Shown here in pieces: positions 58 through 8,561 of a DNA stretch of 8,561 nucleotides. Location of the stretch: the NCBI GenBank assembly GCA_947074225.1, contig CAMTOX010000065.1, positions 1-8,561 on the forward strand, given 5' to 3'. The notes beneath the pieces were generated by a model. It had not been told where the DNA came from and did no database searches. It saw only the letters and a program-made list of their open reading frames with translations. Positions within the stretch are counted from its first letter, which is position 1, and every line of letters begins with the position of its first letter. The translations under genes and the position numbers were made by a program. Source of the stretch: an uncultured bacterium (GTDB taxonomy: Bacteria; Bacteroidota; Bacteroidia; Bacteroidales; Paludibacteraceae).

Positions 58-1440
58 TTATTTGTTTTTTATTATTTGAGCGGTCATCTCTGCCTCTGTT
101 GCTATCTTTCCATTTACAAAGACATAGCCTTTGATACTTGCCAAACCTCGACGAATAGGAGTAGTTAAGAATACCTTCATTACCATAATATCTCCTGGAA
201 CAACTTTCTGACGGAACTTAACATTGTCGATCTTTAAGAAGTAGGTCGAATATCTTGAAGGTTCATCAACTTGACTTAATACCAATAACCCGGCCGATTG
301 TGCCATAGCCTCTACTTGAAGAACACCTGGCATGACAGGCTCCTCTGGGAAGTGACCCAAGAACTGCATCTCATTGAAAGTGATATTCTTTATAGATACA
401 ATGTTATTCTCGCCAATCTCTACTACTTTGTCTACCAATAAGAATGGATAACGGTGAGGCAAAAGTAATTTAATTTGATTAATGTTCAATACTGGAGCTG
501 CAGCGTCATCATACACAGGTGCAAAAACTTCCTGACGTTTAATATCTTTACGTAGTGTCTTTGCAAAGGCAGTGTTTACCGTATGTCCTGGGTGAGTAGC
601 TATTACACGACCTTTTATAGGACGGCCAATCAAAGATAAATCGCCTATTAAATCCATTAACTTATGACGAGCGGGTTCATTATCAAACTTCAAAGGGCTA
701 TTTAAATAGCCCAACTCATTCTTTGGTACCTCACGTTGTTGCATAATTTCGGCAATGTGTGATAACTCAGAATCGGAAACCTGACGGTCGTAAATTACCA
801 AGGCATTGTTTAAATCGCCACCTTTTATAAGGTTCATCTTCAATAAAGGCTCTAACTCACGTACAAAAACAAAAGTACGGCATGGTGCTATCTCCTGTGG
901 GAAGGCCGACATGTCGTCCAATATCGCATATTGATTAGATAGTATTGGAGAGTCAAAACCTATCATCACTTGTGCCGAGAAACAGTCGTCGGGCAGCATT
1001 ACTATTTGCGACTGACCATCTTCACTCGTGTAGCTAATTTTCTTAGTTACCACAAAATAGTTCTTCTCCTCACTCTGCTCTGTAATACCTACTTTTGCTA
1101 TCTCTTCGCTATAAATAGCTGCACTGCCATCTAAGATTGGGAATTCTGCAGCATCTACTTCCATTAAACAGTTGTCAATGCCTGCAGCATAAAGAGCTGC
1201 CAAACAATGTTCCACAGTGCTCACCTGCGCATCGCCTTTCTTCAATACGGTACCGCGTTGTGTCTCTGTAACATATTCGGCCAATGCAGGAATCTCTGGA
1301 GTGCCATCTAAATCTACACGACGAATGATATAGCCACTGTTTTCAGCGCCTGGTTTTACAGTCAACTTAATATTTAAACCTGTATGTAAGCCTTTACCGC
1401 TTAGGGTAAAAGAATCACCTAAAGTTAATTGTTTTGCCAT
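58..1440 (-). CDS. lpxC-fabZ: Bifunctional LpxC-FabZ: UDP-3-O-acyl-GlcNAc deacetylase fused to 3-hydroxyacyl-ACP dehydratase
   Basis: This 460-residue protein joins two cytoplasmic enzymes. Residues about 1-305 are LpxC, the zinc deacetylase that commits UDP-3-O-acyl-GlcNAc to lipid A. STVEHC holds the first zinc ligand (H78) beside the catalytic Glu (E77); RHKLMDLIGDL holds ligands H259 and D263; H286 in HPGHTVN matches the second catalytic histidine. Residues about 318-460 are FabZ, the hot-dog-fold dehydratase of fatty acid elongation: LLPHRYPFLLVD opens the domain, GHFPEEPVMPG carries catalytic His363, and Glu377 follows in QVEAMAQ. A short Ala/Pro-rich linker (about 308-317) separates them. 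All key residues of both halves are present, so both activities are expected. The fusion is a known Bacteroidota trait and puts the enzyme that withdraws 3-hydroxyacyl precursors for lipid A next to the one that diverts them to membrane lipids. ATG start at 1440, TAA stop; the gene sits 55 bases after lpxD and 9 bases before lpxA. Confidence 0.97.
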   Translation of the reverse strand: MAKQLTLGDSFTLSGKGLHTGLNIKLTVKPGAENSGYIIRRVDLDGTPEIPALAEYVTETQRGTVLKKGDAQVSTVEHCLAALYAAGIDNCLMEVDAAEFPILDGSAAIYSEEIAKVGITEQSEEKNYFVVTKKISYTSEDGQSQIVMLPDDCFSAQVMIGFDSPILSNQYAILDDMSAFPQEIAPCRTFVFVRELEPLLKMNLIKGGDLNNALVIYDRQVSDSELSHIAEIMQQREVPKNELGYLNSPLKFDNEPARHKLMDLIGDLSLIGRPIKGRVIATHPGHTVNTAFAKTLRKDIKRQEVFAPVYDDAAAPVLNINQIKLLLPHRYPFLLVDKVVEIGENNIVSIKNITFNEMQFLGHFPEEPVMPGVLQVEAMAQSAGLLVLSQVDEPSRYSTYFLKIDNVKFRQKVVPGDIMVMKVFLTTPIRRGLASIKGYVFVNGKIATEAEMTAQIIKNK

Positions 1441-7160: not shown

Positions 7161-8514
7161 TTAATCTTTTGTTTTTACTTGATGAGCGGCTCTCTTCTTC
7201 TTGAAGAATGAGCGTACTCTCTCTATCTGACGTTTTATCAGAATGCCTATAGCCTCCGGATTCATTATAGCAGAATCTCTTGCTGCTTTGTAGGTTAGGA
7301 ATATGCCTATGGGCAATAATATTGCCGAACTTAACCACATGCCCTGCCAAACATCCAACACCCCTTGTCGCGCCATCTTCTGGCCCATAGTGTCTATGAT
7401 ATAGTAGATAATAAACATCACTACCGATATGACTACCGGCATCCCTAAACCTCCTTTGCGAATAATTGAACCTAATGGGGCTCCAATAAAGAAGAAGATT
7501 AAACAGGCAAATGAGAGTGTAAACTTACGGTACCACTCTATAGAGTGACGCGTGTAATATTTATCGGCATCGTCAATAATGACTCGATTATATTGTAGGT
7601 CGGAGGCTACACTCTCAATACGTGTTTTAGAGTTTCGCAAAATATTTACCATATCGCCTTGCGTCGACTCTAGAAAAAGGGTGTCGGCATTGTACACCAC
7701 CTCCGGTTTAATAGCATTCAGAGTGTCTACTTGTTCAAAGGCACGCGCATAATATTTATCTTGCACCATCTGGTTGCTAAAGCGGGTGCGTAAGGAGTCG
7801 CGGAGCACATTTATGGAGTCTATATCGTTTGTTAAACGTACTATATCTTTACTCACATGCTGGTTGCTCAGCATCGACTCATCTTTCAAATTAAAGTTGG
7901 CATCAAAATCTATCAACACCTCTTTGCGTGCAAAACTCTCTCTGCGATAAGGCACACTTCCTTTACCCATCTTTCCCTCGCCTTGATCCAAGTTCTCAAA
8001 CGACTCGCCATTTACCAACGTTAGTTTCAAATTCATCTTGTCCTCGGTAAGTCGCACGTAAACTGTGTCGGCAGTGGTAACAGAGGCGTTTTCAAAACCT
8101 TTGGAGAAGTCGTAAATCATCACATCTTCCAAACCTGAGGTCTCCATATTCTTGTTACGCACATAAAGACGCATATTGTTAATGCCCGAATAAAATTCGC
8201 CTACGGGAATGTCCAATTCTGGCGATTTCTCGCGTATAGAGAACATTAAAGTCCACATGCGCTTTTGTGCCACCGGAATAACATTGTTCGAGAAAAAGAA
8301 GGCACCAACGCTTAAAAAAGCTATGAAAAGGGTTAGTATGCGCATAATCCTAAATAACGAGACACCGGCACTCTTCATGGCCAATAGCTCTAACTTCTCG
8401 CCCATATCGCCAAAAGTCATTAGTGAGGCCAAAAGAATGGCAAGTGGTAACGCTAAAGGAATTAAAGTTAAACCGGCATAAAAAAAGAATTGCAATAACA
8501 CTGTGGTGGGCAAC
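7161..8514 (-). CDS. LptF/LptG (YjgP/YjgQ) family LPS-export permease, N-terminus missing
   Basis: About 450 genuine residues of a permease of the LptB2FG type, the inner-membrane ABC machine that extracts LPS and hands it to the periplasmic bridge. Visible in order: a hydrophobic helix ending LPLAILLASLMTFG with the following GEKLELLAMKSAG coupling segment, another helix ending FFFSNNVIPVAQ, a long periplasmic region with GEFYSGINNMRLYV, then three C-terminal helices (around FFFIGAPLGSII, VVISVVMFIIYYIID and SSAILLPIGIFLTY) and a basic tail. The family has six membrane helices; the first, roughly 45-55 residues, is absent because genomic sequence stops at about 8514. The in-frame GTG at 8531 is inside adapter sequence and is not a start. 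The periplasmic part (about 245 residues) is much longer than in E. coli LptF. LptF and LptG cannot be told apart here. TAA stop, 36 bases before ribBA. Confidence 0.9.
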
Positions 8515-8561
8515 AGATCGGAAGAGCACACGTCTGAACTCCAGTCACATTCAGAAATCTC
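8515..8561 (+). other. Sequencing adapter contamination (Illumina TruSeq-type), not genomic
   Basis: From 8515 the plus strand reads AGATCGGAAGAGC and continues through ACACGTCTGAACTCCAGTCAC (8528-8548). That is the standard TruSeq read-1 3' adapter, followed by eight bases ATTCAGAA (8549-8556), which look like an i7 index (the sequence I recall as D705), and ATCTC (8557-8561), the beginning of the constant region after the index. The match is continuous to the end of the window. The first A may be genomic or the A-tail base, so the boundary is uncertain by one base. Confidence 0.98.

What the first reader, a model, noticed from the sequence alone, without database searches (positions are those of the whole stretch)
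8515..8561. Contig ends in 47 bases of Illumina adapter plus an index barcode
The sequence directly shows the TruSeq adapter core, an 8-base index-like word and the start of the post-index constant segment, in the correct order and orientation. It means read trimming failed for the reads that ended this contig. Any protein called across the junction is chimeric, and the same library may have other contaminated contig ends.
Basis: partly seen in the sequence, partly recalled or inferred. Interest (0 to 1): 0.75.

Follow-up and report, generated by a model that had tools for sequence, protein, structure and literature searches.

The report
Sequencing adapter stuck on contig end
The last 47 bases of this contig are laboratory sequencing adapter with a sample barcode, not bacterial DNA, and they stand in place of the start of a predicted lipopolysaccharide-export gene; about 150 other contig ends of the same draft genome carry the same kind of tail.

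Summary
The 13-base core occurs 164 times in this 393-contig genome, 0 times for the reversed control; the 156 that I fetched all lie within 200 bases of a contig end, with one dominant i7 index (85 of 105 readable) and one dominant i5 index (26 of 45). Tail lengths give the likely reason for stopping after 47 bases: clean i7 tails pile up at 46-49, tails with an error at 48-55, one tail in 156 at 56-60, as expected if a k = 55 de Bruijn assembler ended each contig at the first 55-mer shared with another adapter junction; two contigs here share a terminal 55-mer. Raw-read coverage could not be tested. Low interest.

The parts
8515..8548 (+). Illumina TruSeq-type i7-side adapter (34 bases), read-through orientation
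   Evidence: exact match; same string at 89 places in this genome (40 forward, 49 reverse), 0 for the reversed control
8549..8556 (+). 8-base i7 index ATTCAGAA
   Evidence: 85 of 105 readable i7 tails of this genome have exactly this word; the other 20 differ from it by one base
8557..8561 (+). first 5 bases (ATCTC) of the constant segment behind the index
   Evidence: longer tails of the same genome continue ATCTCGTATGCC (L196, L200) and, with errors, on to CTTCTGCTTG and poly-A (L227)
7161..8514 (-). genomic part of an LptF/LptG-family permease gene: 450 codons and the stop (7161-8513) plus one further base; the first 46 codons are missing
   Evidence: PF03739, E 1.4e-59, match starts at profile position 39 of 353; P0001 matches residues 47-496 at 449 of 450 positions and has 46 more residues at the N-terminus
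7161..8531 (-). chimeric ORF as listed mechanically (456 aa, GTG start inside the adapter; first six residues MCSSDL come from the adapter plus base 8514)
   Evidence: alignment

Best explanation
The 47 bases at 8515-8561 are untrimmed Illumina adapter with the library's i7 barcode ATTCAGAA, and they likely reached the contig because reads of short inserts ran through the insert into the adapter and were assembled untrimmed. Shown: the sequence, its recurrence at about a fifth of the contig ends of this genome with one dominant barcode pair, and the normal continuation of the gene in another public sequence. Inferred (about 0.85; the confidence given below is for the first sentence): the contig stops 47 bases into the adapter because the assembler used k = 55 and its path reached a 55-mer (8 genomic bases plus 47 adapter bases) that also occurs at another adapter junction of the same metagenome, where such paths merge and contigs are cut.
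For: Exact adapter, index and constant segment in the right order. 164 core matches, 0 in the control; 156 of the 164 fetched, one per contig end, all within 200 bases of the end; 110 i7-type and 46 i5-type. Index ATTCAGAA in 85 of 105 readable i7 tails, AGGCTATA in 26 of 45 readable i5 tails; all 20 other i7 words and 13 of the 19 other i5 words are one base away (my count for i5). Other contaminated genomes carry other indices: TCCGGAGA in G190 (3 of 3 loci read), GAGATTCC in G256 (1 of 1). P0001 continues the gene through the junction. For k = 55: 130 of 156 tails are 43-55 long and one is 56-60; clean i7 tails have median 47 (n = 65), i7 tails with errors and length up to 60 median 52 (n = 41), p = 1e-15, and the difference stays when errors are counted in the first 45 bases only (61 clean, median 48; 41 with error, median 52; p = 3e-15); the clean lengths fit a longest-shared-suffix model with about 40,000 junctions (observed 7, 23, 20, 9, 1 for 6 to 10 shared bases; expected 5.3, 27.4, 18.9, 6.2, 1.7; n = 60, one outlier dropped); contigs C40 and C53 share their whole terminal 55-mer, with the same rare error.
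Against: No raw reads were available, so trimming failure and coverage are inferred. With the outlier kept, the model fit is poor. Of the 156 tails, 5 are shorter than 43 and 21 longer than 55, and so do not stop at a k = 55 merge. The shared-suffix bound among clean ends has 0 violations, but 73% of shuffles also have none, so it adds little; k = 56 and 57 have no violations either, so the exact value 55 rests on the upper edge of the main group and on one shared pair. The partner contig sharing the window's own terminal 55-mer was not looked for; it would probably lie in the rest of the metagenome, which these tools do not hold.
Confidence: 0.98

Rival explanations
1. The 47 bases are real genomic DNA of the bacterium that happens to resemble an adapter.
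For: The frame stays open across the junction in the lptF direction.
Against: Exact 47-base match to adapter plus index; 164 core copies against 0 in the control, all 156 fetched ones at contig ends; P0001 has 46 ordinary LptF residues there instead; 292 of 297 relatives searched have no exact copy of the 34-base adapter.
Confidence: 0.005
2. Adapter contamination, but the contig stops at 8561 simply because the longest read-through read ended there, not because of a k-mer merge.
For: Some tails in this genome run on past the adapter into poly-A or noise, up to 198 bases, and five tails are only 16-35 long.
Against: Read-end stops should give a broad spread of lengths; instead 60 of 65 clean i7 tails fall at 45-49, error-bearing tails are systematically longer, and the main group ends at 55.
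Confidence: 0.12

Closest known systems
Adapter contamination of microbial genome databases (Moeller et al. 2024, PMC11536531; parts 1 and 2 of 3 of the text read)
   Same: Universal adapter AGATCGGAAGAG at contig ends and its reverse complement at contig starts, next to forward- or reverse-specific adapter; many copies per assembly; contigs taken to be broken there.
   Different: The parts I read do not discuss the index bases or tail length as a trace of the assembler's k; those are computed here, for one genome.
LptF/LptG family permease (PF03739), the gene that is cut
   Same: Strong Pfam match over the rest of the protein; all 7998 scored candidates of a capped database search are related (E up to 0.001).
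   Different: In the predicted ORF the first 46 residues are replaced by six adapter-coded residues.

Membership tests
Illumina TruSeq adapter read-through | Universal core followed by i7-side adapter in read-through orientation | tested here: met
   the core and the two side-specific strings are quoted in PMC11536531
Illumina TruSeq adapter read-through | 8-base index constant within the library, different between libraries | tested here: met
   85 of 105 ATTCAGAA here, the other 20 one base off; other indices in G190 (3 of 3 loci) and G256 (1 of 1). That ATTCAGAA and AGGCTATA are catalogue TruSeq indices (D705, and D501 reversed) is recalled, from no call; a paper search for it found nothing
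Illumina TruSeq adapter read-through | Located at contig ends | tested here: met
   156 of the 164 core matches fetched; all 156 within 200 bases of a contig end; 8 not fetched
Illumina TruSeq adapter read-through | Reads past the junction are read-through of inserts shorter than the read | not testable with these tools
   no raw reads available
LptF/LptG permease (PF03739) | Match above Pfam's gathering score | tested here: met
   202.4 bits against 27.9

The most novel reading that the evidence does not exclude
Adapter tails are a readable forensic record: their length distribution gives away the assembler's k (55 here) and the rough number of adapter junctions in the hidden metagenome (about 40,000), and the peptide they encode carries the sample barcode into protein databases (the residues ISEC in EISECDWSSDVCSSDL are what index ATTCAGAA encodes), so chimeric database proteins can be traced to a small set of barcodes.
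Probability: 0.7. Interest if true: 0.2.

Novelty: not a real feature. Interest (0 to 1): 0.06.

Why it matters
It is ordinary, but it has consequences. The ORF of this contig's LptF begins with six adapter-coded residues and lacks its true first 46. About a fifth of this genome's contig ends (156 fetched of 786) carry such a tail, so other genes at those ends are probably chimeric too (not examined). Public protein sets already hold adapter-coded peptides with the residues that this barcode encodes (P0121, P0123, P0124), which could mislead searches for shared motifs. Trimming contig ends would remove the problem.

Tried and rejected
Real genomic sequence: rejected by P0001 and the genome-wide pattern. 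Missing half of the gene elsewhere in the bin: a search with the first 54 residues of P0001 gave three weak hits (best E 0.048), one of them in contig C128, which also gave the second, distant LptF/LptG match; the 80-base flank occurs once in the bin, so the other side was probably not assembled or not binned. Bound test among clean ends: not discriminating. Looking for P0001's gene in viral contigs: nothing, as expected. Papers holding the adapter-coded peptides or run SRR7610133: none in this library. Papers holding both the index and its recalled catalogue name: none, so the name rests on recall. Searches for adapter contamination papers (listings of 20 and 11, of which only PMC11536531 was opened) and for assembly-graph papers (listing of 6, none opened).

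Full report
What is there. The last 47 bases of the window (8515-8561) are AGATCGGAAGAGCACACGTCTGAACTCCAGTCAC, then ATTCAGAA, then ATCTC. The window is the whole of contig C65 (8561 bases) of a 393-contig, 2.2 Mb, 67.5% complete genome, so this is a true contig end. The universal core and the side-specific strings of both adapters are quoted in Moeller et al. 2024 (PMC11536531, parts 1 and 2 of 3 read). That ATTCAGAA is the catalogue index D705, and AGGCTATA the reverse complement of D501, is recalled and comes from no call.

Is it more than chance? The 13-base core occurs 164 times in this genome (76 forward, 88 reverse) and the reversed control 0 times. I fetched 156 of the 164, each on its own locus; all 156 lie within 200 bases of a contig end, 110 of i7 type and 46 of i5 type. 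Of 105 i7 tails in which the index can be read, 85 have ATTCAGAA and 20 a word one base away (four tails were too short and one with a deletion was left out); of 45 readable i5 tails (one was too short), 26 have AGGCTATA, 13 a word one base away and 6 a more distant one (last two figures my count). Constant barcode, variable genomic neighbour: a library artefact. Among 297 relatives, 5 also carry the 34-base adapter exactly; three loci read from G190 have index TCCGGAGA and the one from G256 has GAGATTCC, so the word varies by library. The adapter plus ATTCAGAA is also in 42 stretches of named genomes in the GTDB-based collection, 33 of them in metaWRAP bins of runs SRR7610133, SRR7610136 and SRR7610141 (my count from the titles), and in 8 stretches of viral contigs. 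Whether the window's genome comes from that project was not established; the tool says records of the window's own genome may be left out there.

What it interrupts. On the minus strand the gene is an LptF/LptG-family permease (PF03739, E 1.4e-59, match beginning at profile position 39). The mechanical ORF starts at a GTG inside the adapter and begins MCSSDL. The best database protein, P0001 (held by an ENA source, 496 aa, contig of 2540 bases), matches the 450 genomic residues at 449 positions and has 46 further residues, ending MVGKG, where the window has adapter. The four other relatives aligned have the same kind of N-terminus, all four with GKG at the junction. The missing N-terminus was not found in this bin, and the flank is single-copy.

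Why it stops at 47 (inferred). Call T the number of bases from the start of the adapter to the contig end. Clean i7 tails: 65, of which 60 are 45-49 long. i7 tails with at least one mismatch and T up to 60: 41, from 48 to 59, median 52 against 47, Mann-Whitney p = 1e-15. Since a longer tail has more room for an error, I repeated it with errors counted in the first 45 bases only and T from 45 to 60: 61 clean (median 48) against 41 with error (median 52), p = 3e-15. Of 156 tails, 130 are 43-55 long, 5 are shorter, 1 is 59 and 20 exceed 60; several of the longest run to the end of the adapter and into poly-A or noise. This is what a de Bruijn assembler with k = 55 would give: adapter junctions merge once a 55-mer is shared, so a contig ends with j genomic bases shared by chance with some other junction plus 55 - j adapter bases. 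For clean i7 tails j should follow the longest chance match to N other junctions; with one outlier (j = 3, L159) set aside, the fit gives N about 40,000 and expected counts 5.3, 27.4, 18.9, 6.2 and 1.7 against observed 7, 23, 20, 9 and 1 for j = 6 to 10 (n = 60); with the outlier included the fit is poor. Error-bearing junctions are rarer, so they should share fewer bases and run longer. C40 and C53, with the same rare error, share exactly their terminal 55-mer (L196, L200), and that pair rules out k = 54 under this model (2 violations counted), while k = 56 or 57 is not excluded by violations but has no tight pair. For the window, j = 8 and T = 47. In the named collection, 33 of 33 tails from the metaWRAP bins are 44-53 long, while 6 of 9 from other projects exceed 55 (my count; the held stretch of one metaWRAP contig, L077, stops 2 bases short of the contig's length, so its tail may be 48 and not 46), as expected if those used other settings. 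That metaSPAdes often uses k = 55 is recalled.

Why the genomic path was broken here is not known. One pair elsewhere in the genome is suggestive: C250 ends and C220 starts with the same 39 genomic bases, each directly bordered by i5 adapter: an overlap shorter than 55, too short to join at that k. It is the only pair among the 156 fetched ends that shares a genomic 21-mer; the fetched genomic parts range from 98 to 1500 bases, so longer overlaps may have been missed.

Downstream. The adapter's reverse complement is open in two of three frames and reads EISECDWSSDVCSSD in the LptF frame. A search with the first 40 residues of the open frame scored 54 candidates and found five proteins at E up to 10; besides P0001, which lacks the adapter peptide and so matches by its genomic part, P0121, P0123 and P0124 contain EISECDWSSDVCSSD, and P0122 a version with other barcode residues, EIKECDWSSDVCSSD. 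No paper in the searched library holds the peptide strings that I searched.

Verdict. A confirmed artefact of a published kind; nothing biological. The trace of k in the tail lengths is a small extra.

Noticed in passing
L049 (G000:C220 start) and L051 (G000:C250 end): The two contig ends share exactly 39 genomic bases, each directly bordered by i5-side adapter: probably adjacent pieces of the genome whose overlap is shorter than the inferred k of 55.
   Followed up: partly
P0121, P0122, P0123, P0124: Public proteins that contain adapter-coded peptide (DWSSDVCSSD); P0124 carries a PF02305 match (a phage capsid family, name recalled), and P0121 is largely adapter-like peptide in several frames.
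   Followed up: partly
G190, G256, G036, G088, G184: Five of 297 relatives also hold the 34-base i7-side adapter, 67 copies in G190; indices read in two of them differ from this library's.
   Followed up: partly
L227, L226, L217, L224 (ends of G000 contigs): i7 tails that run through the adapter into A-rich sequence, three of them on into unrelated bases, unlike the main group.
   Followed up: no
window 58-1440, minus strand: LpxC and a FabA-like domain (FabZ type) fused in one protein, next to lpxD (1496-2617): lipid A genes, with HD-domain, MatE and ribBA-type genes between them and lptF.
   Followed up: no
L159 (G000:C234 start): One clean i7 tail of 52 bases, longer than the k = 55 merge model expects for an error-free junction.
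   Followed up: no
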